A stretch of DNA of 64,000 nucleotides from Trileptium ribeirensis (Eukaryota; Nematoda; Enoplea; Enoplida; Thoracostomopsidae), in contig JASANE010030220.1 in assembly GCA_030248225.1 (NCBI GenBank), forward strand, positions 1 through 64,000, read 5' to 3'. Below the pieces are notes generated by a model that worked only from the letters and a program-made list of their open reading frames with translations, had not been told where the DNA came from and did no database searches. This document shows, in pieces, positions 2,141-27,487 of this stretch; positions within the stretch are counted from its first letter, which is position 1, and the number at the start of each line of letters is the position of its first letter. The position numbers and the translations under genes were made by a program.

Positions 2141-2149
2141 GCTTTTATA
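2141..2149 (-). promoter_or_regulatory. TATA box in the 3' LTR
   Basis: TATAAAAGC on the minus strand, the counterpart of 25829-25837 in the 5' LTR. From this LTR it would drive transcription out of the left end of the element. Confidence 0.5.
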
Positions 2150-6006: not shown

Positions 6007-6200
6007 CTGCAGGAATAAACTCAAATAAATTTTCGGGTTGTCGTTGCGTGAGGTCGCTCTATTTCGCTAAGCGCTCGCTGGTTAACTCTTTTTGTCCTGC
6101 TTTACCTACGCGTTACCTTATAGCACTGCTACCCTGAGCGTTTCTCTTACCTCTCTAAATCGGCTATTTCTTCCCCCTTTTTGCTTGGATTGGTACGGCC

Positions 6201-7434: not shown

Positions 7435-7534
7435 CTGAAATGAAGGAAGCTCTGGTAAAGTTACATAGTTTGGATGAAAATTAGGTCTGCCTTAACCTTC
7501 ACCCTTGTTATGGATTTTGCGGGGAATTTGGGTT

Positions 7535-8071: not shown

Positions 8072-9997
8072 TTATTCGGTGCTTGCAAACTGAATAGTTG
8101 AACCGCCTCGAGCCGACACTATTTGTTTCCGTTGGGTGGCCCGTCCGGCAAGGCCTTTTCCCCGATCTTCTGGCGGTGCTCGCGTGCTCCGTTGCTCGCT
8201 CGGCAGTGCACGGGTGCGAGGAGGGGTGTTTAGTGTCACTGCTCGCCCAGTTCCTCTCCGAGGTGCTGGTGCTTCGCTGCTTGAACTTGCAAGTGTGAAT
8301 TCACTAAATGAGTCAGAGGCTCCCGGTTGGGTGGTAGGCGTCCTAGAATCACTGCTTGATGTTCCTAGTCCGGCCTGGCCATGTCGCTCAGCTGAAGAGG
8401 GTTCCTGCGAGGTTTGGCTAGTCAACTCATCGTCCGCGTCAGCTGCTCTTACATCTACTGTCGTACCCTCTCCGGAGGTTTCCAACAGGTAACTGGACAT
8501 TGGTGACCCTAGGGGTGGCTGGATCATGGGTGCCTCGCGAAAGACCCACTGATGAGGAGACATGGGCCTGTTAGCGGCTGCTGGTGGAGCACTATAAGGG
8601 CGCAGTGTTGTATAGTCTCCTATGGTTTGAGTGGACATTTCCACCGGTACCCGTAGTCGCGATGCCATGATATGTTCAGCTGGTCGTGATTGAAATAATG
8701 GGTGATCCTGCGCGGCGAGCATGATTGCGTATCGTAGATCTCCTGAGGTGCATGGTTCTGGTACGACGATTCCGCCTGAAGCTCCGCGTGGCGTGGTAGA
8801 TAGCGTGATGTCCGCTGTGTATAAATGTTGTCCCTCGAGTATTCCAACACCTACGGTCGGTACGCCGAACGGAACTTCCTCACTGGTAGCCACTATTCTT
8901 TCCATCGTGGTTACTGGCACGGTGTGTTGTCCGTATTCTACTTGTGTATCTCGGCTACCAGGTTCGGGTATGTATGAAAAGGCCTCCTGGCTGGTAACCT
9001 GTTCTTGCGCTATTGGTGGCCAGGAAGGTTCTATTTCCTTATCGGTATCAGTTAGCGGGATCCGATTTCTGACCGTCCTTGGATTTTGGGGTTCGTAGTC
9101 GTCCGTCCGATACTCAATATGTTCCATTGCTGCTTGTTCAGCTTCGATTTCAGCGTAGGTTCGACGATAGAAATTAGGGTCGTTAAGGTCACCCATTTCT
9201 ATACTTTCCGTATCGGAACTATCACTGACTGCTGTTCTTACTGTACGTACTGCTACTTCGTCTACCGGTTCTATCTCGGTAACGAAATCCCTATCAGCGA
9301 TAATTCGTTGGGTTGCTTCGGTCAAACCCCGCTCTAGTACGGAAGCGTGTACCTGGCCTAACCAATCACCTACGTTGGGTACTGGGTCTAATGCCTTAAA
9401 GCATGGCTTAGTTCTATTAATATGTACGACATGGGCCATGCCTTCTGGATTAGAATGCATTCGTACGCGTATGCACGGCGGGGTGATCCCTAATATTTTG
9501 TATGGTCCACACCATCGAGGCGTGAGCTTCCTAGATGTTCCTGGTGTAGTATCGTGTCGATAAACCCAAACTAATTCTCCTGTATGATAGCGTGGTTCGC
9601 GGGTTCGCCAATCGTACCTTAACCGATTTAATTTTTGAGCGGCTTTCATTGATTGGTAAGCACGCTCCCTGATAGAAGCCATCCAGCGCTGCGCGTTGGC
9701 CCTATAGGAATGTGCTCCTGTGTATCCGATGGCTGCACTATGCGTGTCATATTCTCCGGGCAACCTAGGATAAAATCCGTGCATTAGCAAAAATGGTGGG
9801 TATTTTGTTGCCGTATGCACTGAAGAGTTATAGGCCATTATGCAAAATGGTAGGGACACATCCCATGAGTGGTGATCATCCTGTGGTACACTCACTCGTA
9901 ACAAGTATAATAGTGTCCTGTTAAATCTCTCAATTTCACCATCTGCCTGAGGGTGATAAGATAACTCATGTGCCGAAATATTTGCATCTCCTGGCAC
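8072..9997 (-). CDS. pol: Integrase copy II C-terminal part plus long tail
   Basis: 641 codons, entered out of frame from the upstream integrase fragment. The first residues carry the last catalytic block (YHPQADGEIERFNRTL), followed by the usual gypsy integrase connector (MAYNSSVHTATKYPPFLLMHG) and a GPY/F-type module (LTPRWCGPYKILG). A tail of over 400 residues rich in Ser, Thr, Pro, Glu and Ala follows, ending in TAA at 8072. It is unlike known pol domains and may be a disordered chromatin- or packaging-related segment; that is speculation. The first codon is GTG, so this is a fragment of a polyprotein, not a gene with its own start. The first third is duplicated at 10565-12200. Confidence 0.75.
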   Translation of the reverse strand: MPGDANISAHELSYHPQADGEIERFNRTLLYLLRVSVPQDDHHSWDVSLPFCIMAYNSSVHTATKYPPFLLMHGFYPRLPGEYDTHSAAIGYTGAHSYRANAQRWMASIRERAYQSMKAAQKLNRLRYDWRTREPRYHTGELVWVYRHDTTPGTSRKLTPRWCGPYKILGITPPCIRVRMHSNPEGMAHVVHINRTKPCFKALDPVPNVGDWLGQVHASVLERGLTEATQRIIADRDFVTEIEPVDEVAVRTVRTAVSDSSDTESIEMGDLNDPNFYRRTYAEIEAEQAAMEHIEYRTDDYEPQNPRTVRNRIPLTDTDKEIEPSWPPIAQEQVTSQEAFSYIPEPGSRDTQVEYGQHTVPVTTMERIVATSEEVPFGVPTVGVGILEGQHLYTADITLSTTPRGASGGIVVPEPCTSGDLRYAIMLAAQDHPLFQSRPAEHIMASRLRVPVEMSTQTIGDYTTLRPYSAPPAAANRPMSPHQWVFREAPMIQPPLGSPMSSYLLETSGEGTTVDVRAADADDELTSQTSQEPSSAERHGQAGLGTSSSDSRTPTTQPGASDSFSEFTLASSSSEAPAPRRGTGRAVTLNTPPRTRALPSEQRSTRAPPEDRGKGLAGRATQRKQIVSARGGSTIQFASTE

Positions 9998-10564
9998 AGC
10001 TCTTCGAACATGTGTGCGGTGAAGGCACCTCCTCGGTCAGAATAGAGCTCCTTGGAACTCCGTACCTATTGACTACCTCATATAAGAATATGTGGGCAGC
10101 TGTATGAGCATCCTGGTGCCTTATTGGCACTGCTATTGCAAATTTTGTAAACTGGTCTATGAATGCAATAATATAGCGGTTGCCTGCCTGCGACCTGACC
10201 TGAATATCTAGTATGTCTACAAACACACGATACATTGGTTGATTTGCTAACGGAACCCTACCCAATCCGGTGGTTATCCGAGAAATTGGGTCCTTCGCGG
10301 ACTGGCATAGGGTGCATCGCCTGATCCATTGTTGTACGTGTTCGGACATACCCTTCCAATTGTAGAATTTGTTAGAATTGTTTACGAATTTGCTATACCA
10401 ATGTGATCGGGACGCCTAACTTGTAGTTTATGTCTCCGGGTTGTAATGGATGCATGTATAATATTTTGGTATCCGCGACTAATTCAAAATAGTGTGCCCG
10501 CATTTCTATTCGTAGCGCGCCTAATTCGGCCTTAGGCCGAGTTTTATTATAAAGATACCACCAA
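8971..10564 (-). repeat. Integrase block, duplicate II
   Basis: Direct duplicate of 10565-12200. The junction near 10564 joins a CCACCAA end to TGTATGAAAAGG, the sequence also found at 8971. The block runs from just before the zinc-binding domain to part of the C-terminal tail. This copy has lost about 65 bp of the HH part of the zinc domain and carries single-base indels near 10050 and 9970. Flanking frames show it is the downstream copy in element orientation and the one still connected to the long tail. Confidence 0.8.
9966..10349 (-). pseudogene. pol: Integrase copy II core fragment
   Basis: Reads from the zinc-binding cysteines (WIRRCTLCQSAK) through the first catalytic Asp (FVDILDIQV). 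It then leaves frame at YGVPRSS, where copy I continues with GAPRELYSDRGG. The cause is a 1-bp deletion relative to copy I. The second catalytic Asp is therefore lost from the frame. Upstream, the histidines of the zinc domain are deleted. This copy cannot encode an active integrase. Confidence 0.75.
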
Positions 10565-11066: not shown

Positions 11067-12200
11067 ACAAGGCGGGGTGATCCCTAATATTTTGTATGGT
11101 CCACACCATCGAGGCGTAAGCTTCCTAGATGTTCCTGGAGTGGTATTGTGTCTATAAACCCAAACTAATTCTCCGATAGCGTGGTTCGCGAGTTCGCCTA
11201 TCGTACCTTAATCGATTTAATTCTTGAGCGGCTTTCATTGATTGGTAAGTACGCTCCCTAATAGAAGCCATCCAGCGCTGCGCGTTGGCCCTATAGGAAT
11301 GTGCTCCAGTGTATCCAGTAGCTGCACTATGCTTGTCATATTGTCCAGGCAACCTAGGGTAAAATCCATGCATCAGCAGGAATGGTGGGTATTTTGTCGC
11401 TGTATGTACCGAGGAGTTGTAGGCCATTATGCAAAATGGTAGGGATACGTCCCATGAGTGGTAATCATCCTGTGGTACACTTACTCGTAATAGATACAGT
11501 AATGTTCTATTGAACCTTTCAATTTCGCCGTTTGTCCGGGGGTGATATGCTAAACTCATGTGCCGAAATATTTGCATTTCCTGGCACAGCTCTTCGAACA
11601 TGTGTGCAGTAAAAGCACCTCCTCTATCAGAATAGAGCTCCCTGGGAGCTCCGTACCTATTGACTACCTCATATAGGAATATATGGGCCGCTGTATGAGC
11701 ATCCTGGTGCCTTATTGGCACTGCTATTGCAAATTTTGTAAACTGGTCTATGAATGCAATAACATAGGGATTGCCTGCCTGCGACCTAACTTGAATATCC
11801 AGTATGTCCACAAATACACGGTACATTGGTTGATTTGATAACGGAACCCTACCCAATCCGGTGGTTATCCGAGAAATTGGGTCCTTCGCGGACTGGCATA
11901 GGGTGCATCGCCTGATCCATTGTTGTACGTGTTCGGACATACCTTTCCAATAGTAAAACTGTTTTAGTTTAGCTATAAGCCGGTCACGGCCAGGGTGTCC
12001 TCCATATAAAGTATTGTGTTCATGTTTCAGTATTTGCTGTACGAGCGTGATAGGGACGCATAGCTTGTAATTTATATCTCCGGGTTGTAACGGATGCATG
12101 TATAATATCTTGGTATCGGCGGCTAGTTTAAAATAGTGTGCCCGCATTTCAATTCTTAGCGCACCCCTTAGGCCGTGTGTTGTTGTACAGGTACCACCAA
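10565..12200 (-). repeat. Integrase block, duplicate I
   Basis: Direct duplicate of 8971-10564. It holds the complete zinc-binding and catalytic domains of integrase. It has a small deletion near 12165, where the other copy reads TRPKAELGALR, which shifts the frame at its entry, and a 5-bp deletion near 11172 which shifts it after the catalytic core. Confidence 0.8.
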
Positions 12201-12222
12201 ATTGGACCCAGCTCCGGGTCAT
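11152..12222 (-). CDS. pol: Integrase, copy I (complete catalytic core)
   Basis: Retroviral-type integrase that would insert element cDNA into host DNA. It has an H2C2 zinc-binding domain (His 69, His 76, Cys 106, Cys 109). The catalytic triad is Asp 139 in FVDILDIQV, Asp 199 in LYSDRGGAF and Glu 235 in NGEIERFNRT, with exactly 35 residues between the last two (DD35E). The connector KYPPFLLMHGFYPRLPG is typical of Ty3/Gypsy. It follows RNase H after a linker at 12149-12535, from which it is frame-shifted by a small deletion near 12165. It loses frame after RREPRY (5-bp deletion) before the GPY/F module. It is the better preserved of the two integrase copies. Confidence 0.9.
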   Translation of the reverse strand: MTRSWVQFGGTCTTTHGLRGALRIEMRAHYFKLAADTKILYMHPLQPGDINYKLCVPITLVQQILKHEHNTLYGGHPGRDRLIAKLKQFYYWKGMSEHVQQWIRRCTLCQSAKDPISRITTGLGRVPLSNQPMYRVFVDILDIQVRSQAGNPYVIAFIDQFTKFAIAVPIRHQDAHTAAHIFLYEVVNRYGAPRELYSDRGGAFTAHMFEELCQEMQIFRHMSLAYHPRTNGEIERFNRTLLYLLRVSVPQDDYHSWDVSLPFCIMAYNSSVHTATKYPPFLLMHGFYPRLPGQYDKHSAATGYTGAHSYRANAQRWMASIRERTYQSMKAAQELNRLRYDRRTREPRYRRISLGL

Positions 12223-12535
12223 TTCGTTGTATATACGGTAAGAGCCGTACTAAATTGAAATCTGGGAGATCTGAAAAGAATGGCAGATATATATTTTCGT
12301 GTGTGTCCTGTGCGTCCTCAATTCGGACGGCTGGTAGTATCTCGGTTTCGTAGAGCATCATTAATTTCATGAGCCTATCAAACTCTTGTTCGGTTGGTAG
12401 TGTGGTTGCTCTTAGGCCCTTTGTTTCCGATTCGGTGCGAAATGGTCTTTTGGGTCCTCGAGCCTGAGGTCTGCCTTCAGAACTCGAGATAGTGGTTGTG
12501 CGGACCGACATCACTGGGGTTTCTCCTGAACCCAT
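12149..12535 (-). CDS. pol: Pol linker between RNase H and integrase
   Basis: Same frame as the RT/RNase H segment, separated from it only by a TAA at 12623-12625 (one change from CAA). It includes WWYLYNNTRPKG, matching the start of the duplicated integrase block. The frame is lost near 12165. No catalytic domain is visible; it appears to be the spacer that precedes the integrase zinc domain. Confidence 0.65.
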   Translation of the reverse strand: MGSGETPVMSVRTTTISSSEGRPQARGPKRPFRTESETKGLRATTLPTEQEFDRLMKLMMLYETEILPAVRIEDAQDTHENIYLPFFSDLPDFNLVRLLPYIQRNDPELGPIWWYLYNNTRPKGCAKN

Positions 12536-12622: not shown

Positions 12623-13699
12623 TTATGGGATTGCTTCGGGATTGGGTTGGCTCGGAGGAGCCATCGGGCTCCCTGTTATAGGTGTTGGTGCACCGGTCGC
12701 GAGCGGTGTAGCAGTGCGTACGGGATAGGGCAGGTGCGATTGATCCCATGCTGCGCAGGTTGTTGGCGGGCGAGGTCCGGTGGGTCGTCCTCGACCGATC
12801 ATAAGGATTTCGTACGTATCACTTAATTCCTCAACTACAGATGGGTCGTATCTAGGGTCGCGTGATAGAGCATCTGCATTGCCATTTTCCTTACCTGGTC
12901 TGTATAATATTTCGAATCCCACGAATTCAAGTAATAGCTCACTTCGCCATTGGGACAAGCGTGAGTTTCTGGGTGGTTTATCAAAAAGAGTTTTAAGTGG
13001 TTTGTGGTCGGTCTCAACATGGAATTTGTGCCCTACTAAGTAATGCTTGAAATGTAATGCGGCCCACATGATGGCGAGAGCTTCAGTTTCTATTGCGGGG
13101 TACCTGCGTTGATAATCAAGGAGGGCCTTGCTAGCGTATGCTATGGGTTTAATGCCTTGTTTAGTTTTCTGGGATGACACGGCACCCATAGCATATCCCG
13201 AAGCGTCCGTTTGCAGGATAAACGGCTGCGTGAAATCGTGGTGGATTAGGACTGGCTCATCTAGCAATGCTTGTTTCAATTTCTTGAAAGCTTCCTCGCA
13301 CCTAGGGGTCCATTTGAATTCCGTGTCCTTACGTTTTAATTCATTCAATGGTTTACAGATATCTGAGTAATTTTGGATGAATTTATGGTAGTACCCTACA
13401 AGCCCTAAGAAACTTTGGAGCTGCTTCAACGTTTCCGGACGTTTAAATTCCTCTGTGGCTATTGCCTTTTCTGGGTCTGGTTTGACGACTTCGGTACTAA
13501 TTATGTGTCCTAAATACTTGAGGCTGCCTCGTCCGAAGTGACATTTTGAGGGTTTGAGTTTTAAGTTCGCCTTACGGAAACGATCGAAAACCCGAATCAA
13601 ATCTGCCAGATGGGCTTCGAATGATGGTGAGAAAACTAGGATGTCATCGATGTATATTAGACATTTTTCCCACTCAAGTCCTTTCAAAATCATTGACAT
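12623..13699 (-). CDS. pol: Reverse transcriptase C-terminal half and RNase H
   Basis: In the same frame as the 13724-15550 segment. It begins just after an in-frame TGA within the FGL..P motif of RT. It contains the RT active site YIDD (residues 16-19) and the thumb (SKCHFG, LKYLGH). RNase H acidic residues are Asp 165 (TDASGYAMG), Glu 206 (ETEALAI), Asp 231 (ETDHKPL) and Asp 276 (NADALSR). It would copy element RNA into cDNA and degrade the RNA template. The segment ends in a Pro/Thr-rich stretch and TAA at 12623. All catalytic residues are present, so the only visible damage here is the two nonsense codons. Confidence 0.93.
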   Translation of the reverse strand: MSMILKGLEWEKCLIYIDDILVFSPSFEAHLADLIRVFDRFRKANLKLKPSKCHFGRGSLKYLGHIISTEVVKPDPEKAIATEEFKRPETLKQLQSFLGLVGYYHKFIQNYSDICKPLNELKRKDTEFKWTPRCEEAFKKLKQALLDEPVLIHHDFTQPFILQTDASGYAMGAVSSQKTKQGIKPIAYASKALLDYQRRYPAIETEALAIMWAALHFKHYLVGHKFHVETDHKPLKTLFDKPPRNSRLSQWRSELLLEFVGFEILYRPGKENGNADALSRDPRYDPSVVEELSDTYEILMIGRGRPTGPRPPTTCAAWDQSHLPYPVRTATPLATGAPTPITGSPMAPPSQPNPEAIP

Positions 13700-13723
13700 G
13701 CAGCGTTCAAAGGCACCGGGAGA

Positions 13724-15550
13724 TCAATTCAGGCCGAATGGGAGGACATTATACTCGTACTGTCCGTGTACCGTCACGAAAGATGTCTTATCTTTGGTTT
13801 CAGGATCTAGTTCTAGCTGCCAAAATCCTTTATTTAGGTCCAAACTGGACATTAGTTTCGTATTCCTGAGGCATCCTAGTATGTCATCTATGCGTGGCAG
13901 CGGATACGCGTCCTGTTCTGCTACCGTGTTGACCTTCCGAAAATCAACACAGAGTCGGAGACAGCCGTCGCTTTTCGTTACGTTGACTATTGGAGATCCC
14001 CAAGGTGAGCTCGATGGGGCGATGAGGCCTGCGTCTAGCATGCTATTCAGTTCTTCCCTAAGTGGTTCGCGTAAAGAATGCGCCAGCCTATATGGTGCTT
14101 GTTTGATCGGCTTTGCATCCCCTGTTTCTATGCGATGCCGTTGTTCGGTGTATCGTCCCAGGTCAAAATCATGTGTGCTGAATACGTCGGCATTTTCAGC
14201 AATTGCGGTTTTCAGTTGTTTTAACTCAAAGGGTGACAGTAACGTCCTATCAAAATCTATTTTACTCAATACGGTTTGAGCCCGTTCATGATCAATGGAG
14301 CGCTTGCCTGCCTCGATGTGCTCGATAATCCTCTCGGGGTGGGTAGTGATATGGTTTAGTTGTTTAGCCTCCTTATGTTCCTCATATCGTATCAGATTTT
14401 GATTGGTGTCTTTAAGGAATTGTATTGTTGGATTGCTCATGACCTCTATGTGCCCAATAGTTTGTCCGGAGTATATGGTGACCGGTGTATTATCAAAATT
14501 GATGACGGCGATCGGTATGGTCCCCTGACTTCTGAGGACCAATGCGTGTGCCATAGCGATATCGGTCATTTCGGGAGCGGGGACAAATAGAGCCTGTCCT
14601 ACGCCTGTGTCAGCAATTTCGGGGATAGCCTTGATAAACGTTTCTGTATTTGGTTCGATGGTGGTGAGTTTTCTGCACATCACTGCTATTAAGGGTGGGT
14701 CATAGCACTCTAAGCCTGCGAAGGGTATTTTGGCTTCTTCCTCGTCTATGCCAATTTCTAAACAGCGCTCGCGAAAATTTATGATGCACTTTGGCAGCTG
14801 CGACAACAAATTTGTTCCTAAAATGCAATGGTACGGGGCGGTTTGGGTAACGAAGAATTCCGTCTGCACCTTAATAGGCCCAATCGATAAGGGTACACTT
14901 ATGCTACCGTCCAATGCTAATTCCTGTTTGGTGGCCGATACTATCCGTGTTGAATCGTCTGGGCGGGGCTGAAGGCCTAACTTACTTACCAAATGTTGTG
15001 ATACGATAGAGACGTCCGCGCCTGTATCGATCAACGTGAGGACTGGTGTCCGGTAGATGAAAGCGTTGATGAGCAACGGTGCGTCTGTGTGGTGCATGGC
15101 ATTGACTTGTCGGTGGTAAGATAGTGTGCGATGTCCCCTACGTTGCGCACGCTCGGATACTGCAAATAGTTCCGTAGGTTCTACCAGAACAACATCCTCG
15201 TCCTCATTGGGGTTATTTAGTCGAGCCGATCGATGAGGGCTCAATGTCCGCAATTCCAAGTGTTCCGCGGAGGCGGCTGGAGCTGAAACTGCAGGCCGGA
15301 CCGCATCTGAGGTACCATACTCGTTTCCGGTTTTGATGTTCAATTCAAGTCTCTTTGGGTTTGTTTGACTACATGATCGTTGTTGCCACCAGCGTTGTAA
15401 GCGTCCTCTTATACATTTAAGGCAAAAGCCTGCCTTCTTCCTGAAGTAAATGATAGCCCCTATGCCCACAACTACTAGCACGACAAGTATCCAAAGGTAA
15501 GGAGCTACTCCCGTCGTCGTAATGTACGGAAAGTCGATCACCTTCTTCAA
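13724..15550 (-). CDS. pol: Env membrane anchor + protease + RT N-terminal half
   Basis: A 608-codon open frame with unusual composition. It starts with the end of the envelope: a transmembrane helix (about residues 19-36, LWILVVLVVVGIGAIIYF) followed by a basic, Cys-containing tail (RKKAGFCLKC). Without any stop it runs into a retropepsin-type protease (LIDTGADVS, Asp 175) and the RT fingers and palm (SLDLNKGFWQL, Asp about 571; VHGQYEYNVLPFGL). An in-frame TGA ends it at 13724 inside the FGL..P motif, and RT resumes in the same frame beyond. Upstream, the env ectodomain enters through a frameshift near 15585. The usual order puts env after pol; here the anchor precedes protease in one frame, so an Env-Pol polyprotein or internal processing is implied. 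Confidence 0.88.
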   Translation of the reverse strand: MKKVIDFPYITTTGVAPYLWILVVLVVVGIGAIIYFRKKAGFCLKCIRGRLQRWWQQRSCSQTNPKRLELNIKTGNEYGTSDAVRPAVSAPAASAEHLELRTLSPHRSARLNNPNEDEDVVLVEPTELFAVSERAQRRGHRTLSYHRQVNAMHHTDAPLLINAFIYRTPVLTLIDTGADVSIVSQHLVSKLGLQPRPDDSTRIVSATKQELALDGSISVPLSIGPIKVQTEFFVTQTAPYHCILGTNLLSQLPKCIINFRERCLEIGIDEEEAKIPFAGLECYDPPLIAVMCRKLTTIEPNTETFIKAIPEIADTGVGQALFVPAPEMTDIAMAHALVLRSQGTIPIAVINFDNTPVTIYSGQTIGHIEVMSNPTIQFLKDTNQNLIRYEEHKEAKQLNHITTHPERIIEHIEAGKRSIDHERAQTVLSKIDFDRTLLSPFELKQLKTAIAENADVFSTHDFDLGRYTEQRHRIETGDAKPIKQAPYRLAHSLREPLREELNSMLDAGLIAPSSSPWGSPIVNVTKSDGCLRLCVDFRKVNTVAEQDAYPLPRIDDILGCLRNTKLMSSLDLNKGFWQLELDPETKDKTSFVTVHGQYEYNVLPFGLN

Positions 15551-16532
15551 CTGTTCGTCGGCTATCCGTTGGACCTAAGTTGGTAGCCTTGGCATGTTCT
15601 AATGAGCTCCAGGTGATAGACCTGAGAGGAATATCTGTGAAGTCATGTATGGTGATGTTAGATCCGATGTGAACGATGACCTCTTGAGCGTCTAATGTAC
15701 CAGCGAGCATTAGTTGTCCGACCACTAGTTGGGTATAATTACTGTGAGATAGCCATAGTACTCCATTTTCTGATATCTGGATGGTTTCTCCGCGCGTAAC
15801 GTGGCTGAGGTGCTTTTGCTTGGAGACCACAGCTTTGGGCTCTGCGGTTCGAATTAGTACTCCCTGCGCGGTGGTGTACACGTCGGTATGGTTGACCATT
15901 GGTCCTACCAATGCGCTGTTCCTGCATATGCGGCGCGTGTCATCTGGAGCGTCTTCGCCCATAATGATCCAATCCAAACAGCGTGAAGAATGGTCGGTGG
16001 CCAACGCGTGAACCTCGCAAAAAGCAATGCCGGGTCGCGTGTTGCATGCGTGGAGGTTCAACATCTCATATCGTGCCTGTTTAACTCGCGTAGCGTATTC
16101 TGGCAGGGGTAATCTCATGTGCGCACTACGCTCTGGTACGTTCCAACCGACGTTGTATATCCGAAAATAAGGCCGGACGTCGTCCGACCTGACTAGCGGT
16201 ACCCTTAGGATGAATGCAGACTTGAACGTACCCAGGTCAATGTGCACTGGGTAAATTTGCCCGAATTGGTAAGCTAACGCCGGCTCGCGTGTTAGTATAG
16301 TTTGCCATATTCTCGGGTCCTTTTCGAATAGACGCTTTAGTGTCGTGGCATCCACTACCTTGGGTGATAATTGCCCGCTCATCATGGCTTCCATGACGGC
16401 GTCAACTGAAGAGCGCAGGCTAGTGCGAAACATATGGCTTACCAATTCGCGATGCACCTCTGTCACGTAGCGTTGTTCCTGGCACCTGGCCTGTTCTATC
16501 ATGCCAACCACTTCCTGCATTTCATGGTGCAA
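15417..16532 (-). pseudogene. env: Envelope-like protein, ectodomain part 2
   Basis: Continues the ectodomain in a different frame after a small indel near 16540. It starts with a helical stretch (MIEQARCQEQRYVTEVHREL) that follows the fusion-peptide-proximal heptad region of the previous fragment. It contains several cysteines (NLHACNTRPGIAFCEVHA, SRCLDW, RRICRN) and N-glycosylation sequons (NHT, NYT, NIT). Near 15585 the real reading moves to the pol frame. This ORF's last 50 or so codons are the anchor region read in the wrong frame. The ectodomain has no counterpart I can name; its arrangement (cleavage site, fusion peptide, heptads, Cys-rich region, anchor) resembles F-type class I fusion glycoproteins of errantiviruses and related viruses. 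Confidence 0.65.
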
Positions 16533-17674
16533 GAAGGAGTAAGATCCTCGTTAGCGAGTGTTAATTTCAAAATTGCTCGCGAGTTGCCCTGGGCCACACT
16601 GTGAGTTTTTCGCATTTCCTTAGATAATGCTATCCCCTGTTTATTCAGGTCCTTTAGATGCACTGCATTTGTCAAGGCTACCCCTACTCCTAAAAATCCT
16701 GTAACTACGCCAGCAGCTCCGGCCAGTGCGGCGAGGAATCTTTTCTTACGAGCCATAAGCTCTTCACAAAAATGGACGTTCGCTTCGCAATATTCGCGCA
16801 TTAGAGCCATGTAATAACTCGTGTCTAGCACACCCTGATATGTTCTCCTTAATTCTCGTTCCAACTCCTGAATTTTACGTTGTAAATCCGGCATAGTAGT
16901 ACAATTCGGGTTGGGACAGCAGTCTTCCAGGCATGGTTTACCCCTGGGGGTGTAGACACACCACGCCATACCGGTTGCTTGCCTGCTCGGTTGTAACCCA
17001 TCTAGGGACAACCGCAAAACGATCGGTAGAAAAGTGGATCGCGCGGCGGTTATTACCAGGCCCTGCGGTTCGATTAGCGTACCTACTTGTTGGTTAACCA
17101 TGGCCCCTAAGCGTGCTACCTGGTCCGAAAATGGCGTGGCGATTGCCTGGGTTTGACCCAATTGTTCGACGACAAGCAAAAAAAGCATTATTCCCATAAA
17201 TCTAATCCATCGGCTCCACAATCCTGCAGCTGCTGCATATTGCCGGCTTAGTCTGTTTGGGAGGGGCCGTACCGACCTGGTCAGTATTGCGCGGCCACCC
17301 TCAGTTACGTCAACATACGGTTCGTCTTCGAGGTTGTCGTTGTCCGGGAGTGAGTCGAGTTCGGAAACCACGTCGTCCGAGTCGAGCGTTGCAATGGCGG
17401 ACATGTTAAATCCGCCTTCACTCATGTCACTGGGCGCTGTACTCAACTCGCTCTCGATCTCCTCCTCGTCCATGAATGTTATGTCCGCGTCCGGGTTGAC
17501 AATCGAGCCTGTGTCCATGTCGTCGTCCGGATCAGTTTGCCAGATATTTTGCGCGGGCTGACGCAACCATAATAGTCTCAGGTATAGCAGTTCTTCGCGT
17601 TTCTGCACGCGGTCTACTTGCTTAAAAATAGCATTCGCTATGACTGCATATACAATGTGGTCAATTGACAGCAC
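16499..17674 (-). CDS. env: Envelope-like protein, N-terminal part with fusion peptide
   Basis: 391 codons, starting with GTG, so the true start is upstream or internal. In order: a short hydrophobic stretch; an acidic region (about 45-125); a signal-sequence-like hydrophobic segment (about 155-177, RWIRFMGIMLFLLVVEQLG); a Cys-rich motif (CLEDCCPNPNC, 248-258); a coiled region; RKKR at 309-312 (16739-16750 on the plus strand), a furin-type site; and then the very hydrophobic, Gly/Ala-rich segment FLAALAGAAGVVTGFLGVGV, followed by a heptad-like region. This layout is that of a class I fusion protein, with cleavage freeing the fusion peptide. It shares its frame with the protease-RT ORF, suggesting that two compensating indels lie in between. 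Confidence 0.75.
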   Translation of the reverse strand: MLSIDHIVYAVIANAIFKQVDRVQKREELLYLRLLWLRQPAQNIWQTDPDDDMDTGSIVNPDADITFMDEEEIESELSTAPSDMSEGGFNMSAIATLDSDDVVSELDSLPDNDNLEDEPYVDVTEGGRAILTRSVRPLPNRLSRQYAAAAGLWSRWIRFMGIMLFLLVVEQLGQTQAIATPFSDQVARLGAMVNQQVGTLIEPQGLVITAARSTFLPIVLRLSLDGLQPSRQATGMAWCVYTPRGKPCLEDCCPNPNCTTMPDLQRKIQELERELRRTYQGVLDTSYYMALMREYCEANVHFCEELMARKKRFLAALAGAAGVVTGFLGVGVALTNAVHLKDLNKQGIALSKEMRKTHSVAQGNSRAILKLTLANEDLTPSCTMKCRKWLA

Positions 17675-18240
17675 CGGTGCAATGGACCGGATTCGCCATA
17701 TTCAGTAACGAGGTAGTCCAGCAAGTACGGTGCACTGGTCACAGTTTCTAACCACTCTAAGTTAGCTTCTCGGTATGCGATCAACTCAGAGGCTGTGTGC
17801 AACCCATATGTGCGACTGGATTGGATGGTAATAGTTCCGTTGGGTCGGACGATGCCATATTCAGCAGACAAATTTCCCGTATAGTCCCACTCGCCGTGAT
17901 ACGTGATGAAAGTACAACCGCGGGTGGGCATAAAACTAGTGTTGTGTCGTCCCTCGCACGCCTGGCATGTCCGAAGGATGGGAATCTGAGAACGGTATAT
18001 TTCAGTAATGGCCTCGGTGATACTCATTGCATTTAACACCCGGGCAATTAATTCCAGTAAGCCTTCGAGGTGTCTCACCATACCACTGCTGACATGGATC
18101 CCGGCCATAGTGTGCAAGAACGGAGATGCGAACCCTAACAGCCCGGACACAACAGCAGCATCCCGCCGTTGCTCCAGTGGGGCTGTTCCAGCCGCTCGGG
18201 CCAGGAGCAACTGGTGGGCATGGCATATCCGCTCCGACAC
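17638..18240 (-). CDS. ORF A, glycoprotein-like, unknown
   Basis: 200 codons from a GTG; the frame is open further up to at least about 18300, overlapping the end of ORF X in another frame. It contains a basic doublet followed by a hydrophobic stretch (RRDAAVVSGLLGFASPFL), a helical region (VRHLEGLLELIARVL), a CQAC motif and sequons NTS, NLS and NGT. It overlaps the next fragment (17674) by 37 bp in a different frame, so it may be the N-terminal part of the same envelope protein separated by an indel, or a distinct surface protein. I do not recognise a family. Confidence 0.5.
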   Translation of the reverse strand: MSERICHAHQLLLARAAGTAPLEQRRDAAVVSGLLGFASPFLHTMAGIHVSSGMVRHLEGLLELIARVLNAMSITEAITEIYRSQIPILRTCQACEGRHNTSFMPTRGCTFITYHGEWDYTGNLSAEYGIVRPNGTITIQSSRTYGLHTASELIAYREANLEWLETVTSAPYLLDYLVTEYGESGPLHRCCQLTTLYMQS

Positions 18241-18268
18241 AGCGATGACTCTTCGATAAAATAAGGCC

Positions 18269-20107
18269 CTAGCGAGTACTACCTGGGCGTAGGCGAGGGG
18301 GTATGAATGAATAGCGGGGCACCTTCCCAGGTCCCAAGGTTACAATCGTGGGTGCGAATTCGGAGTCAGGTCCCAATAGTATTAGTCGTTCCTCATGGAA
18401 CAATCCCTGGAGGTTTAGGGGCTCTACCTTTTCTTCGGTAGGGCTCTTCGAGAGTATCTTTCTTAGAGCGAGATCCAGATTGTGCTGTGCATTAGTTTGC
18501 GGGTTTAGTGGGTGCGTGGCCTGTTCAGGTGTTTCGGTGTGATCGCAAGTAAGTTCCGTGGTGGGGTTCGCGTCATTGGGCTCCCAAATCAGTCTAATCC
18601 GCGGTGACCTAGGCGTAGCTAGTGTTTGTTCAATTATGTCCATCAGGTTGACCGGCAATCCGGTCGTTCCATATCCAATTTCATTCACTATTTCTCTACT
18701 TAAGTAACAGGTCACTGTCTCAGGTTGGGTTGCTGTTTGTTCCACTATCCGGTTGCTTGCACGGGCGTTTTTGTCAAATTCGGGTGCCATAGGTGTCACA
18801 ATCATAATATTCGAGCTTGGGCTAGCAGTTATCGGCTTCCTTAGGTCAGTATTAGGTTCCACTTGTTCCTTTGTTTCCAATTTCTTATCCTTATCATTCA
18901 AAGTCAGGTTCATTGCTGCTCGACTACCATGATCACCTATACTAGAAATATTTTCGGCACTCGGCTCAATTTTGTCTCCATGTGGCTCGGAACCCTTTTC
19001 ACTCACGAGCGGCAAAGCTTCTCTTCCCGGTTCTACACACACGCTGGAGGCATCGGTTCTGGCCGACTCAGATTCAAACGCACACATATCCACCTGATGG
19101 TTGGATTGGCTGTGCCGCGACAGACTCAAACCGGAGTTTCCGACCTGGTCAGATCCCACAGCCCCTACACTTAGGGATCGGGCTCTATACGAGCTTGATC
19201 CTACAGATAAATTACAATTTTGAGCGGAGCTCGGGCCATCGGGACGGCTCACTTCCGAACGCCTCCCTTCGCCTGGCCAGTGTCCTCTACGGTGCTCCCC
19301 AGCCTCTAAAGAATCTAGGGTACACATACGCTCTCGAATTTTGAACGGAGTTAGGACAATCGGGCTGACCCGTTTCCCGAAGGTCTCCATCGCACCTGAC
19401 CAGTGTCCTTTACGGTCTTCCCCGGTCGGTTGAAACGCTACAGGGGCCTCACACGGCCGCCCTAAATTGGTGGGAGCCAGTTTAGTATCGGATGCATACA
19501 CTCGGTTCCTTGGTTCATTTAGTTCCCTTGGTTCTCGGTTCCCTTCCGCTAGGTTTCTCAGTATTCCATTCCATCCATTAGGTTCCGCTAGGTTAGGTTC
19601 CACTAGGTTCTCGGTATCCGCAAGTTCATTAGGTTCTATTGAGTTCACTGAGTCATCCGCAGGTTCTTCTGGTTCCGCTACACATATACAATTTTGAATA
19701 AGCTTATGAAAAGTCGCGGTTTCACCAGGTTGTGCCGTGCCGGCGTTAGAGCCATCGCCTGACACGCGACCCCTATTAATCGGCCCCCGAAGTCCGAACG
19801 GCGTCTCTCTAGGTTCCATTCCATTAGGTTCATCCTCCATTGGTTCCTTAGGTTCCGCATCCATAAGTCCATTAGATTTCCTCTGATATGCAGCCGCCTG
19901 AGGTGGGTTACACGTGCCAGCGTTTGAGTCATTGCTAGACACGGATGCCTTATTAATCGGCCCCCGAAGTCCGAACGGCCATCTCCCATATTTCTCACTC
20001 GGCATATCAGGTACATTAGGTTCCTTTGGTTCCATTAGTTCCTCAACTCCTCCTCCCCTCTCACTCCTCTCGGTATCTCGGTTTCCATCACTTCGCGCTG
20101 ACTCCAT
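18269..20107 (-). CDS. ORF X, repetitive novel protein between gag and env
   Basis: About 612 codons from the first ATG at 20107; the frame is open to a GTG at 20164. It ends in TAG at 18269. Composition is low-complexity, with many EPK/EPN/EPxE units. An imperfect repeat of about 59 residues has FGLRGPIN followed by SNAGT in both copies. A further repeat pair carries RKGHW and RRGHW. The C-terminal third is less repetitive (CYLSREIVNEIGYGTTGLPV). No signal peptide, membrane segment or catalytic motif is visible. It lies in a different frame from gag, with a gap of about 160 bp. Function unknown; a structural or disordered accessory role is only a guess. Confidence 0.7.
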   Translation of the reverse strand: MESARSDGNRDTERSERGGGVEELMEPKEPNVPDMPSEKYGRWPFGLRGPINKASVSSNDSNAGTCNPPQAAAYQRKSNGLMDAEPKEPMEDEPNGMEPRETPFGLRGPINRGRVSGDGSNAGTAQPGETATFHKLIQNCICVAEPEEPADDSVNSIEPNELADTENLVEPNLAEPNGWNGILRNLAEGNREPRELNEPRNRVYASDTKLAPTNLGRPCEAPVAFQPTGEDRKGHWSGAMETFGKRVSPIVLTPFKIRERMCTLDSLEAGEHRRGHWPGEGRRSEVSRPDGPSSAQNCNLSVGSSSYRARSLSVGAVGSDQVGNSGLSLSRHSQSNHQVDMCAFESESARTDASSVCVEPGREALPLVSEKGSEPHGDKIEPSAENISSIGDHGSRAAMNLTLNDKDKKLETKEQVEPNTDLRKPITASPSSNIMIVTPMAPEFDKNARASNRIVEQTATQPETVTCYLSREIVNEIGYGTTGLPVNLMDIIEQTLATPRSPRIRLIWEPNDANPTTELTCDHTETPEQATHPLNPQTNAQHNLDLALRKILSKSPTEEKVEPLNLQGLFHEERLILLGPDSEFAPTIVTLGPGKVPRYSFIPPRLRPGSTR

Positions 20108-20270
20108 TTTGGGATATACACATAAATTGGTCGGCCGACCATTACTCACAGGGTCACGAGTCACACCCTGCGCGCCAGGGGTCGGAGACAGTGAAACCGA
20201 GCGCCGTTCGGTTTTATAATTTGCTTGTTGCTTTTCACGCTCTACTTCTACTGTGCTAGTTAGTTCGCTG

Positions 20271-22136
20271 TCAATTGCGTTGTATTCTCCATTGTCGCCC
20301 CACGACCTGGTCGTGCTCGTGCAATACTCGTGCTGGTGTTCGGTTCGTTTGCAATAAATTCAGTTGATATGGGCTTGGTTCGGGTTCAAATGCGTCCTGG
20401 CCTTCGTATTCTGAGTCAAAGTTCGGGTCATCGTCTGCATATTTTGTGCTGTCTCTAGTGATCATTACGTTGATTTGTGCCGATCGGGCACTCAAACCTG
20501 CTCCCGCGCGTTCCTCTAAGGTTGACATTTCGTGTCGCATGACATCTAGACGATGCGCGAGCTCGGGGTCAGCTGGTCGGGTTACTGACATAACTCCTGC
20601 GTTGCGGCGACTTGATGGTTCATTTTGACTCATAGGCGCCTGCGAAGGCCTTGCTCGAGGGGCTGCCCCTGCTTGATTAGCGTTGTTCCAACCGTTACTA
20701 GGTGTACGCGGGCGGAATGGTGCTGCCTCAGCGGACAGTTGTTGTGGGCCTGTGTGACGCGTGTTAGGTGCGGCGTTATAAGAATTATGCCAGCTATTGG
20801 GTCCGTTAGTGTCGCGGCCACGCGATAGGTTGTAGTATTCAGTTCGGCCATAGTTTCCGTATGTATTAGGAGCAGGTTCAGGGCGGTAATACCCATGTTG
20901 CCCGTAACCTACAGGTCCTCTCTGTTGATTCCATTCATCGCCTCGTGAAGACCGACCTGCTCCGCGGTGTTCAATTACTCGATATCGGGGGCGGTTGTTG
21001 TACTGCGGGGGTGCGCTAGGATAACCGTGAATGGGTGCGGAAGTGTTCTGCGTGTAGCCTGGGGCTGCGCGTGTCGACAAACGAGTGTATTCATTTATTA
21101 GTGGGTCATACACGTCAGTTCGGTAGTACGGACATTCCCGTGCGAAATGTCCAACGAAACCGCATCGAAAGCACTGATTATCTAGGGGTGCTGCTGGAAT
21201 AGCGTTAGCGCCGGCTGCCGGGGTCACACTATTCTGCATCATCGCATTCAATTGGTGCTGCTCAGTGCGTTTGTCTAGCAAATCAATAAGCCGGGCAATG
21301 GTAGCATCGCTACTGGCTGCAGTGCGCTTATTCTCATCCAGAGCTTCGCGGATTTGGTCTACGAGTTAGGTATTCTCACCTCCTTGTGACATGCAGTTTA
21401 CTGTTTTGGACCGGCTGCTCTTGCGAACCGGTATTCCTATTACCTTTTTCTGAGAAGCTAAGATAGCGTCCTCCTTATATTTAAGCTTGTCCATCATGTG
21501 CTTAAAAGACGGGTATGTCTTTCCTATTACTCCGGATTTTAGTTTCCAGCGTAGTCCTTGTCGGAGGAACTTTTGTAATAGGGCGTCGCGTTGTTCACCC
21601 TCGACCTCCGGGAACGCTTTGTTCACAAGGTTTTGCAAGTCCAGTCCGTACAGGGCAACTAATTCTCGTTCCCCTTGTACCCGCATGCGTAGCGTTATCA
21701 AAGCGTCCTCGTCGCGTTGCGATGACGAATACATGAAACCCATATTATAGCAAAGGGCTTCATAAGTTTGCTTTTGACAGTCGGGGAAGCTTTCATATAT
21801 TTTGAGGGCTTCCCCCTTTAGGACAGTTGGAAAACAAATCAGTTTCTGGTCTAGCGTCCATCCGTTTGCGTCGGTCAGGTTGTCGTAAGTAGCCAGCCAG
21901 GCTTCAAAGTCCTGTCCATCGGCTCCTGAAAATGGTGGGATATCCCGTACCTGAATGATAGGAGCCGTCGCTGTTCGCTGCGTCAACTCCTTCAGAATTG
22001 CAGCTAGGGGTTCTCCCGAAGCGATAGGACTGGGTCCATTTGTACTACCAGCCGTAGTGGCAGTGCCACTTCCTACATTCGTCGTTCCCGCTGCGCTACT
22101 TATTGGCGTTCTATTTGCGCTCGCTGGCAATGACAT
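20271..22136 (-). CDS. gag: Gag: capsid and CCHC nucleocapsid, one in-frame stop
   Basis: Structural protein that would package the element RNA. The ATG at 22136 (MSLPASANRT) is preferred; the frame is also open from a TTG at 22160. The capsid-type core contains FSGADGQDFEAWLATYDN, GWTLDQKL and FPTVLKGEALKIYESFP, characteristic of Ty3/Gypsy Gag. TAA at 21366-21368 interrupts after 256 codons. The same frame continues (VDQIREALDENKRTA...) with a zinc knuckle CFRCGFVGHFAREC of C-x2-C-x4-H-x4-C form and a long Arg/Tyr/Pro/Asn/Gly-rich RNA-binding-like region to 20271. The TAA may be a mutation (one change from CAA) or a regulated readthrough; only one copy is available. Confidence 0.88.
21366..21368 (-). 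other. In-frame TAA within gag
   Basis: The stop separates the capsid and nucleocapsid parts, which are in the same frame. The context is ACC TAA CTC. No strong structure or known readthrough consensus is evident, so a lesion is more likely than programmed recoding. Confidence 0.6.
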
Positions 22137-23794
22137 TTTTATTCCGACTTTGATTATCAATCCCTATTTGATTTACTTTGTGTGGCGTCCGTGGTCCCAG
22201 TCTGACGTGGGTACGGATGATATAATATATACTTTTCTATATGTGTTTACTTTACCGCGGAATTTCTACTGTTGGGCGCAATTTCAGTTCACTAAAATCC
22301 TCGTGTACTTATGCCTTAGGTATGTACCTGATAGTGTAAAATTTTCGCTTCGCTTCAACTTACAAAGTCTTTTACGGTTGAGCTTATCACGTATAGCCTG
22401 TATAATTTCACTCAATTCGGGGCTTGGTCGTTGCGCCGCAGCGTGCAAAGTTAGTGGGTTATGTGTGGTTTCACACTAGAGATAGCCTAACTAGTATCTT
22501 CAATTGGTCTAAACGTATTGTCTGCTACGATACCAGAAAGATAACGACGACGGCTTGTACAACTAAAGAGCGACGTGGGTCATGCCAACTGAGCTATTAT
22601 TTCAACAAACTGTTCTAAACTTCCCTAATGGTTACCAAAACTCACTTGGGTCCCAATTTGGAAGTACGTGCGGCAGAACAATGCACAGTTATCAATTTCA
22701 GCCCTCCACTTTCAATTCAATCTCCCCTATCAGAACGTCAACATCCGTTACATAAAACGTTGAAGTAACAAAATAAAATATAAATAAAGCAGAGTTACTA
22801 CACTGACCATTTACAATGTTTCTGATTAGCTTGAATGTTCGTCACGACGTCGAAACGAGTTGTCCAGGGAACGATGGCACGATGCTTCCGAGGTAGCTAT
22901 TGTTCGCAATCACTTCCGGTTGTTGTTATGGCGCACGAGAAAGTGTCAACGTATTAGCTTGAGCGACACGCGATAATTATATCCGACTGGTTTAAGCTGA
23001 TGTCAATTACGTTAAACGTTTGTAGTACGTTGGGTGATGCGGCACCAATACGGATTGACAACCGAAAGCCAATGATGCAGACAGTAACGGATAACTTGAT
23101 GTAGCAGTTACACCGTTTTCGAACGGTAGAATGCGTTCGGTGCACGGCCAACGATTAGTTCAGTCAATCGATATAGTCCCGATTCCTCACACCGAACACT
23201 CGCCCACGCAGTCAATAGTTCACCACAATTTAATCACTATTGATGAGGCAAGACGATAATACCGAAATTTAGTCAGCGTATTCAACGATAGGTCTGAAAC
23301 ACTAACAGCTAAACCCTTAGAGTTAGTTTGGATCGCCACAAATAACCACCCTACCTCGAAAACACAATCAATTAAGTCGACCTCCAGCAAGCAACGTCAC
23401 TTATGGGCTTTCACGACTGCTATTGCAGTTTCCAGAATATGCGCCCAGTCCGTGCAATCCGAGAGTAGGTAACGTCAGGCGGTGCTGCAACCCTGACATC
23501 GAATCCGCTAGTGAAGCGGTCAAATATACCCTACTACAATTTATAGCCAAGGCTACGTCCTCCCAGACTGCACAGACCCGACACAACACTTCACCATTCA
23601 TGTTATAACTAACGTAGGCACTTAGAACACATATAATGATATAATTTTCAATGCGACTTGGATGCGTACGGAGGATAACACTAGCATAAGTGGATAGTCC
23701 CAACCCTGGATGCGAGAGGTCCGACACCTATTAATTTAAAACTCTTGTTCCAAAAATCTAATAACGCCTCACGGCGTGGCCCCCACTTTATTTA
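22137..23794 (-). other. Leader between 5' LTR and gag
   Basis: About 1.66 kb from the end of the 5' LTR to the gag ATG. It holds the candidate primer binding site at its start. A 108-codon open frame (23401-23727, GTG start) has no recognisable domain. It is unusually long for a Ty3/Gypsy leader and may contain packaging signals, but none is recognisable by eye. Confidence 0.6.
23766..23785 (-). promoter_or_regulatory. Candidate tRNA primer binding site
   Basis: The minus strand reads TGGGGGCCACGCCGTGAGGC, beginning with the TGG that pairs with a tRNA CCA end, nine bases after the LTR end. I could not match it to a particular tRNA. The spacing is larger than the 0-5 bases common in this group, so the assignment is tentative. 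Confidence 0.4.
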
Positions 23795-25556
23795 TGTACT
23801 AGGACCAGTTCTGGCCCTAAGGGATCCCAGCTGCACCACTCTCTCAATATTCACTGTGGTGCCCGGACAACCCCGGCTTACACGATTCCCCGGTGGACTC
23901 TGGTCTGACCGATGGGAACCGCTTAGCTTAGTAGGCCGCCGGCGGGTTTACCAGGGTGTTCGGCCCGGCCCCTATAAAGGCCCACGTGTCTAGAGTTATA
24001 GAGGTCCCCCGGAGGGAGGGTCATCCCCTAAGCCTGCTCACAGGTAATGGGGCTGACCCGTCATTCCCTCTCTTGATTTCAACCCTCATGAAAATGCCTG
24101 TAGGGGTGGGACATAACCTATTGGGCCACCAGATGAATGGTCAAAGAGGTAAATTGCGGGATGGACGTTGTATTGGAAATGGTCTAAAAGAACGTATGTT
24201 TCGAGTTACTAAGTTGGGAAAAAAGTGGTATTTTCGACTCGGTTAGTTCTAGTGGGGTGACACAATTTTTTAACGTGAAGTTCCGTTCAGTGATTTATGC
24301 GTGACTATCAATAGCGGGCACAGGGTGGCGTAGAAACACAGCCTAGTGAACGCGTGAGTGAATGGAAATTCTGGAGCGTCTTGAGCGAAAGGGCGATAGC
24401 GGATTTAGCGTGGTTCAAGCGGCAGAGACTCGCTGTGAGTTCAAACACCGATGGCATACACTAATAATTAACCAGTATGCGCCCTATAGTAACAAGCACT
24501 GCGCTTACGGTTGCCGAAGTTTGCTGAGCGGGACAAGATCTCCTATAAATCCAACAAAACCAAATCGCTTGCATGCCAGAAACACTTTGATGAGTTTACT
24601 GTTCCTCTATTTCTACCACTGCAAAACTACTACAAACCACCCTCCGGGTGCACGATAAAATACGCAAATATTTTCCAGACCTGATATTTATGTACACATC
24701 ACCCAATCGGGGTGTACACAACGATTTACGGTTCACCTATTCAGGGGAACAAGAGCATTCTCCGAGAAAATTGCGTGCGGTCTATTCCTATAGTTTCGTT
24801 CTACTATTTGGCCGTTGACAAATTTTACGAAAACCTTTGATGCCGTGGAAAACATGAAAATCCGCCCTGCCGTTAGGGAAGCACAGAATTTTCGCTAAAC
24901 TGGAGTTACCGTCCCGACACCCCGAGACACCCCTTTCCCACGTCTGCATGGCAAAAGTTCCCCGGAGTGAACAGAAGACCCAGCTAGACCACTGACTGAT
25001 CGAAACTTGTGCGAACAGGGGAGCCAAAATTTGAACCCGCTTGAAACGCTGAGAACGGCACCCACAGGAATTAGTTAAACCCGAGTCGGGGCTGGACAAA
25101 ATTTTAACCGAACCGAAATAATGACAAGGCAGAGTCCTATTGGCTTTGAATACCGGGTAAGCAACTGTTTGATTGAACCTAGCCAAATATCCGATTGGCT
25201 CTTGCTGACGTGCACGCAAACGGCAATTCACGATCCTACTGGTACAGAGTAAAAACTCTCTTTATCTTCCCCTTTGAAACCTCGAGCAAAACTCCACTTA
25301 GATCGGATAACCGCTGCAAAACTGTAATTTGCCTAAAATAACTACCAAGACCAATTGAAAATTTCCTCTGCAAACGTATATTTTCCCTACTTTAACATAT
25401 TACAACTCGGTGTCCGCACGATTGTGAACTTGCATGCACTCCCAGGACCGGCACAAAATGGCCCTGGGAGCGGGGAACCACTCGAGCATGGGGCCACTTT
25501 TGATTCATATTTATCCGAAGTTTATCAGTCCTGAATTTCTGTGCGCGGGCGCGACA

Positions 25557-25602
25557 CTTGCGGGGGCCCGGGGCATCCATCAGACGCCCCAGCGCCCGCA
25601 AG
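25557..25602. other. GC-rich hairpin in the 5' LTR
   Basis: Same 46-bp inverted repeat as 1869-1914 (CTTGCGGG paired with CCCGCAAG). It lies about 230-270 bp downstream of the TATA box in element orientation and so would be in the transcribed leader. Confidence 0.6.
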
Positions 25603-25828
25603 GGCTGTCCCTGGGCTGAAAGACAAACTACGGAATTCGCAAATTGAAAGGCCTCGGGTGGAACACTTCCGCACGTCTGCATACCGATGAGTCCACCCGG
25701 GCATGAAGCAAGCGAAAAGCAGGGGCAAATGAAAAGACAACGAAAACCACGGTGACAACCGCCGTCAAAACATGTCAAATTTTTCGAGTAAACAGCTCGA
25801 CTGGTCCCCTTTCGTTAACGGGTCTCTT

Positions 25829-25837
25829 GCTTTTATA
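25829..25837 (-). promoter_or_regulatory. TATA box of the element promoter
   Basis: TATAAAAGC on the minus strand within the 5' LTR, followed by AGGAGACCCG. It is conserved in the other LTR. Orientation matches the coding strand, so transcription would start about 25-30 bases to the left, near 25800. Confidence 0.65.
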
Positions 25838-26002
25838 CTATTCAGCTCGAACCCCCCTTTCTCCCTCTTTGTTCTCTTTGATCGCTCTCAGCCCTAGGGA
25901 TGGCAAGAAATTTTTAAAATTTAAATGCTCGAAACGAAAGCTTTTCGCGGCCAACGCTCAATACTATGTAAAAACACATAGATACGGATGACAAAATATA
26001 AT

Positions 26003-27483: not shown

Positions 27484-27487
27484 TATG
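27484..27487. repeat. Target site duplication, right (TATG)
   Basis: Matches TATG at 109-112 and closes the giant element. Confidence 0.88.

What the first reader, a model, noticed from the sequence alone, without database searches (positions are those of the whole stretch)
15380..17674. Envelope gene placed between gag and pol and fused in frame to the protease
The envelope-like ectodomain with its fusion peptide (16499-17674, 15417-16532) is followed by a transmembrane helix and basic tail. These open the same 608-codon frame that carries the DTG protease and RT (13724-15550). In retroviruses and errantiviruses env is normally downstream of pol and expressed from a spliced RNA. Here the membrane anchor precedes protease with no stop between. 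The first env fragment is in the same frame as pol, so the two shifts in between look like compensating indels in what was one frame. This suggests an Env-Pol polyprotein, possibly with protease exposed on the cytoplasmic side of the anchor.
Basis: partly seen in the sequence, partly recalled or inferred. Interest (0 to 1): 0.92.

Follow-up and report, generated by a model that had tools for sequence, protein, structure and literature searches.

The report
Giant retroelement with mid-polyprotein envelope
This is a decayed copy of a giant virus-like jumping gene whose envelope-like protein sits between its capsid protein and its enzymes in one continuous reading frame; a published planarian element has the same layout, so it is a further example rather than a first.

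Summary
A ~27.4-kb LTR element lies on the minus strand, ordered Gag, unknown region, envelope-like glycoprotein (internal signal, RKKR site, fusion peptide, C-terminal anchor), DTG protease, RT, RNase H, integrase. The window copy is broken, but natural copies in the same genome answer the question without a consensus: signal to protease share one frame in 16 of 20 copies examined; one stop-free stretch holds fusion peptide and DTG in 14 of 20; the frame around env is at least 4300 aa in 10 of 107 and 13 of 97 search rows. Low dN/dS in 12 open copies shows that env and protease were kept by selection. A 30%-identical relative keeps the cleavage site, fusion peptide and eight cysteines.
The arrangement is not new in kind: PMC6431247 reported in-frame env between gag and pol in planarian Burro elements. 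Env matched no known fusion protein by sequence, and the Env-Pol membrane topology is inferred.

The parts
23795..27483 (-). 5' LTR (TGTAACAG...TAGTACA in element orientation), 3689 bp
   Evidence: self-BLAST 94.3-97.4% identity to 113-3700 in three pieces; ends and flanks read; CATA directly outside both LTRs
113..3699 (-). 3' LTR, 3587 bp
20271..22163 (-). Gag with one CCHC zinc knuckle; broken by an in-frame stop at 21366
   Evidence: ORFs; Pfam zf-CCHC 3.3e-05
18269..20359 (-). unknown region X between Gag and env, rich in Glu/Pro with a repeated motif
   Evidence: no Pfam match at E<=1 for 18272-20164; ORF; repeat D6; collinear with a natural copy
17638..18339 (-). conserved stretch of unknown kind just before env
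17138..17224 (-). internal hydrophobic signal/anchor, possible signal-peptidase site after GQTQA
   Evidence: hydropathy peak at the same place in one copy of each subfamily; coordinates; cleavage site inferred
16739..16750 (-). furin-type cleavage site RKKR
   Evidence: RRKR at the same place in P0001
16661..16738 (-). fusion-peptide-like hydrophobic stretch
15576..16541 (-). env ectodomain (F1-like) core; out of frame with its neighbours in this copy
15443..15499 (-). C-terminal transmembrane anchor of env, followed by a basic tail (15442-15380)
14795..15070 (-). aspartic protease, DTG at 15028-15020
   Evidence: Pfam gag-asp_proteas 1.7e-10
13499..13978 (-). reverse transcriptase, interrupted by an in-frame stop at 13724
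   Evidence: Pfam RVT_1 in both halves
12944..13312 (-). RNase H
   Evidence: RT_RNaseH_2 8.2e-36
11152..12249 (-). integrase, first copy
   Evidence: Integrase_H2C2 1.2e-19, rve 9.7e-15
8072..10518 (-). second, tandemly duplicated integrase region plus the C-terminal extension of pol
   Evidence: direct repeat about 1.6 kb apart, 85-95%; MLVIN_C 2.1e-05, below its cut-off
6201..7491 (-). ORF2, broken; NADAR-like fragment
   Evidence: sub-threshold NADAR match in one of its three pieces, E 0.028
4888..6066 (-). ORF3 with a NADAR domain (5820-5374)
   Evidence: PF08719 50 bits against cut-off 35.1, E 5.4e-13

Best explanation
This is a decayed copy of a giant Ty3/gypsy-like LTR element that encodes Gag - X - Env - protease - RT - RNase H - integrase as one polyprotein of about 4.3 thousand residues, with NADAR-related ORFs behind it. 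Shown: gene order, one open frame in many natural copies, selective constraint on env and protease, signal/cleavage/fusion/anchor anatomy like that of class I fusion proteins. Inferred: Gag and X are made in the cytoplasm; the internal signal opens translocation; the ectodomain is made in the ER lumen and cut by furin at RKKR; the C-terminal anchor stops transfer, so protease, RT and integrase emerge on the cytoplasmic side still tied to the Env anchor, until the protease cuts itself free. Capsid, glycoprotein and enzymes then follow the order of a flavivirus polyprotein rather than of a retrovirus, and Pol could reach budding particles through the Env anchor.
For: Same frame in 16 of 20 copies; one stop-free stretch over fusion peptide and DTG in 14 of 20, with an RT motif in 13 of 20. 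Frames of at least 4300 aa in 10 of 107 rows and 13 of 97 rows, overlapping lists, counted; two subfamilies (about 81% identical over env-protease) both have it. Abutting natural pieces open throughout, e.g. 1295 + 1778 + 1251 aa. Within subfamilies dN/dS is 0.014 and 0.034 (A) and 0.00 and 0.016 (B) in the two ectodomain parts and 0.014 in protease. Hydrophobic segments at signal, fusion peptide and anchor in the one copy of each subfamily scanned. P0001, 30% identical over 545 columns, keeps RRKR, fusion peptide and eight Cys. A published element has this order.
Against: No protein, RNA or topology data. The signal segment is the least conserved part (dN/dS 0.43 in A, 0.30 in B), and stem+TM gives 0.345 in A and 0.189 in B on few synonymous changes. 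Subfamily A's scanned copy has a further, weaker hydrophobic peak upstream of the signal that B's copy lacks. The heptad pattern behind the fusion peptide is weak: 79, 59 and 301 of 2000 shuffles do as well for three stretches there. The 20 copies were chosen by me, mostly high-scoring or long-frame rows; 4 of 20 change frame between signal and protease.
Confidence: 0.72

Rival explanations
1. The frame is continuous, but Env is made mainly from a spliced or internally initiated RNA without Gag, perhaps with pol removed by a second splice; the fusion to protease is used only in the long product.
For: Other gypsy-like elements express env as a separate ORF (PMC6431247, section 7). A methionine at residue 290 of the examined piece, upstream of the signal, is present in the one copy of each subfamily looked at. 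P0001 is predicted with its own Met about 90 residues before its signal-like segment and ends before an anchor.
Against: No stop lies between fusion peptide and DTG in 14 of 20 copies, so a spliced RNA would still encode Env-Pol unless pol is spliced out too. No transcripts were available; splice signals were not tested.
Confidence: 0.2
2. The middle protein is not an entry glycoprotein but another captured membrane protein with a furin-like site.
For: No Pfam match over a cut-off and only chance-level PDB matches.
Against: Order signal - Cys-rich part - basic cleavage site - glycine/alanine-rich hydrophobic segment - Cys-containing core - anchor; all but the anchor are kept at 30% identity in P0001, whose model ends before it; HHpred match to gypsy Env reported for the same position in Burro.
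Confidence: 0.06
3. Artefact: unrelated fragments brought together in one decayed locus.
For: The window copy has several frame changes and stops.
Against: The same order and frame on many separate contigs.
Confidence: 0.01

Closest known systems
Burro giant gypsy-like LTR retrotransposons of planarians (PMC6431247, section 7 read)
   Same: Giant LTR element; one huge ORF1 beginning with Gag (CCHC) and holding PR-RT-RH-IN; env-like region in frame between Gag and PR; many copies.
   Different: Here ORF1 frames are 4314-4346 aa against 4,873 and 5,140; total about 27.4 kb against more than 30 kb; one CCHC match against two or three; no BCL2, BIR, ankyrin, MATH/TRAF, SUMO or dUTPase match in Pfam at E<=1 in the two copies tested; NADAR-related ORFs downstream. 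Sequence relation to Burro not testable here.
Errantiviruses / gypsy of insects (recalled; separate env ORF of other gypsy-like elements stated)
   Same: Ty3/gypsy-type pol order, basic cleavage site, fusion peptide, C-terminal anchor (their features recalled).
   Different: Env there is a separate ORF behind pol; here it is in frame before the protease.
NADAR-bearing retrotransposons (PMC12477816, passages)
   Same: A YbiA-type NADAR domain in a Gypsy element.
   Different: [quoted passage not shown] here in separate ORFs behind pol.
Flavivirus polyproteins (recalled)
   Same: Order capsid - glycoprotein - enzymes in one membrane-threaded polyprotein (analogy only).
   Different: No homology claimed; this is an LTR retroelement.

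Membership tests
Ty3/gypsy LTR retrotransposons | LTR pair with TG...CA ends and short target duplication | tested here: met
   (window copy)
Ty3/gypsy LTR retrotransposons | pol order PR-RT-RH-IN | tested here: met
Ty3/gypsy LTR retrotransposons | RT phylogeny within the clade | not tested
   no reference RT set was gathered
Burro-like giant elements | env in frame between Gag and PR in one polyprotein of several thousand aa | tested here: met
Burro-like giant elements | dUTPase-like domain between PR and RT | tested here: inconclusive
   no Pfam match and no PDB match with a profile; a weak domain could be missed
Burro-like giant elements | BCL2, BIR, ankyrin, MATH/TRAF accessory domains | tested here: inconclusive
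   no Pfam match at E<=1 on natural pieces of two copies, one per subfamily; profile-profile methods were not available
Burro-like giant elements | sequence relationship to Burro pol | not testable with these tools
   no Burro sequence at hand
Errantivirus | env as a separate ORF downstream of pol | tested here: not met
   env lies upstream of PR and in its frame; behind pol lie NADAR-related ORFs
Class I fusion glycoproteins | signal, basic cleavage site followed by hydrophobic fusion peptide, C-terminal anchor | tested here: met
   sequence features only:
Class I fusion glycoproteins | sequence or fold homology to a known member | tested here: inconclusive
   no Pfam match over a cut-off, only chance-level PDB matches; fold prediction unavailable

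The most novel reading that the evidence does not exclude
A lineage of env-bearing giant retroelements outside planarians uses a membrane-threaded Gag-Env-Pol polyprotein, so that its protease and reverse transcriptase are carried into particles on the Env anchor instead of through Gag-Pol, and it carries NADAR enzymes that may act on ADP-ribosylated nucleic acids of host defence.
Probability: 0.25. Interest if true: 0.75.

Novelty: new member of a known kind. Interest (0 to 1): 0.45.

Why it matters
It turns a short published report on planarian elements into a testable case: natural copies with the complete frame, in two subfamilies, with strong purifying selection on env and protease. If Env and Pol really leave the ribosome as one membrane-threaded chain, this is a way of packaging Pol unlike that of the retroviruses I know of, and it raises the question of how the Gag to Pol ratio is set without a frameshift.

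Tried and rejected
Led nowhere: IMG/VR scans with TM-PR-RT, env, integrase, RT/RH and P0001 (no relatives); protein searches with the window's env ORF and with the TM-PR region (none at E<=0.001); PDB searches with env pieces, env profiles and P0001 (nothing or chance-level); PDB search for a dUTPase-like domain (chance-level); tRNA and Rfam scans of the window (none). The host could not be named. A COX1 pseudogene (read) has AAA where I recall conserved lysines, which would speak against a flatworm mitochondrial code; the reference motifs are recalled and I do not rely on it. Rejected: chance juxtaposition of fragments (many copies share the order); errantivirus-type placement. Considered and dropped: an SGNH-hydrolase reading of the C-terminal half of the NADAR ORFs (resemblance recalled, no match).

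Full report
What is there. The window's left 27.5 kb hold one large LTR element on the minus strand. Self-comparison gives a repeat pair 113-2314 / 23795-26002 (94.3%), 2310-3003 / 26485-27178 (95.7%) and 3391-3700 / 27175-27484 (97.4%). The ends read TGTAACAG...TAGTACA in element orientation, with the 4-bp sequence CATA directly outside both LTRs, so I put the LTRs at 23795-27483 and 113-3699 and the element at about 27.4 kb. Between them, in element order: Gag with a CCHC knuckle, an unknown Glu/Pro-rich region, an envelope-like protein, DTG protease, RT, RNase H, integrase (partly duplicated in tandem) and two ORFs related to the NADAR family.

State of the window copy. The fusion-peptide ORF and the protease ORF share a frame and the ectodomain ORF between them does not. 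There are in-frame stops in gag and RT. So this copy cannot by itself decide whether Env and protease were ever one protein.

Test on natural copies. A search of the window's own genome assembly (687 Mb, 20,229 contigs) with the fusion-peptide ORF gave 107 rows; one with the F1 region of a second subfamily gave 97 rows. Only the best candidates are scored, so these are lower bounds. I fetched 20 stretches from the rows, chosen by me and leaning to high scores and long frames, five of them from the divergent subfamily. In 16 of 20, signal, fusion peptide, ectodomain, anchor, tail and protease matched in one frame; the exceptions are L035, L037, L040 and L045. Three of the 20 (L031, L042, L045) gave no RT match in their piece. 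In 14 of 20 the longest stop-free stretch of the piece holds both the fusion peptide and DTG, in 13 of 20 also an RT motif; L031 and L033 keep the frame but have stops. In that script the pattern meant for the anchor hit an ectodomain motif, so for the anchor I rely. The frame around env is at least 4300 aa in 10 of 107 rows and 13 of 97 rows; the two lists overlap. For four copies I also fetched the abutting upstream and downstream stretches: the frame opens shortly before the Gag start and closes behind the pol part, e.g. 1295 + 1778 + 1251 aa, the same total as the 4324 aa. Pfam on separate pieces of two of these four copies, one per subfamily, gives zf-CCHC, gag-asp_proteas, RVT_1, RNase H, Integrase_H2C2, rve and, below its cut-off, MLVIN_C in that order. 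No consensus and no mended frame was made.

Selection. In the 12 of 20 copies whose piece is fully open, within-subfamily dN/dS (Nei-Gojobori; 8 copies of A, 4 of B) is 0.014 and 0.00 for the part before the cleavage site, 0.034 and 0.016 for the rest of the ectodomain, 0.014 and 0.014 for protease, 0.013 and 0.00 between protease and RT, 0.005 and 0.010 for RT-RNase H. Less constrained are the stretch before the signal (0.135, 0.129), the signal segment (0.43, 0.30), stem plus anchor (0.345, 0.189; few synonymous changes) and the tail/linker (0.156, 0.013). Between subfamilies synonymous sites are saturated in 6 of 9 segments, so those ratios are not used. Choosing open copies does not by itself lower dN/dS, but it favours recently active ones.

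What the protein is. In the one copy of each subfamily scanned, hydrophobic peaks lie at an internal signal, at the segment behind the cleavage site and at the anchor; subfamily A's copy has one more, weaker peak upstream of the signal. Pfam gave no match over a cut-off (weak ones, best E 0.028, to unrelated families) and PDB searches only chance-level ones. A profile search that scored 8000 candidates out of 5.8 billion proteins found one relative, P0001 (660 aa, contig of 6,432 bases), E 1.2e-72, 30% identical over 545 columns, with a signal-like segment, RRKR, fusion peptide and eight cysteines in common. Heptad tests were weak: 79, 59, 301, 82 and 2000 of 2000 shuffles did as well for five stretches.

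How it most likely works. Shown: order, frame, constraint, signal/cleavage/fusion/anchor anatomy. Inferred: Gag and X stay in the cytoplasm, the internal signal starts translocation, furin cuts the ectodomain, the anchor stops transfer and Pol emerges on the cytoplasmic side attached to Env until protease frees it. A spliced env RNA remains possible, but without a stop after the anchor it would still encode Env-Pol unless pol too is removed.

Comparison with the literature. PMC6431247 (section 7 read whole; [quoted passage not shown] The present finding is therefore the same kind of arrangement. Other searches for such an arrangement showed no second case in titles and abstract starts; of the other listed papers I opened only PMC10309623 (one passage) and PMC9646362 (one passage, a reference), so a further case may stand in a paper that I did not open or that is not held. 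The Burro genome paper is not held. Differences: no Burro accessory domain and no dUTPase domain was detected with Pfam in the pieces tested, which does not exclude weak ones, and NADAR-related ORFs follow pol.

NADAR. The window's last ORF scores 50 bits against PF08719 (cut-off 35.1); ORF2 of four other copies scores 24.6-30.8 bits, below cut-off. NCBIfam gives the same kinship below its cut-offs. A genome search scored 150 of 2317 first-look NADAR candidates, all 150 listed over the cut-off, at 124-141 bits in frames of 135-331 aa; from score and size I infer that these are not this element's ORFs. PMC12477816 (passages) reports NADAR domains in Ectocarpus Gypsy Pol and oyster Tx1 LINE ORF1.

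Verdict.

Noticed in passing
window 6066-4888 and 7491-6201: NADAR-related ORFs behind pol of the giant element; the first of the two in element order (7491-6201) is broken here. A conserved C-terminal half follows the NADAR domain and matched no family.
   Followed up: partly
genome G000: 150 NADAR matches over the cut-off were scored out of 2317 first-look candidates, in frames of 135-331 aa that I infer to lie outside this element; NADAR may have been amplified by several mobile elements.
   Followed up: partly
window 8970-10518 and 10564-12162: Tandem duplication of the integrase region, 85-95% identical by piece, about 1.6 kb apart.
   Followed up: no
window 19736-19979: Two copies of a 67-base unit in region X, encoding a PFGLRGPIN motif; the motif also occurs twice in the two natural copies printed.
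   Followed up: no
L060 (G000:C17193, about 64554-65603): Nuclear copy of mitochondrial COX1 with stops, followed by other sequence that looks mitochondrial to me.
   Followed up: partly
window 48018-48411, 61836-62230, 62827-63168: Interspersed repeat of about 350-400 bases in three copies, one inverted, 84-92% alike.
   Followed up: no
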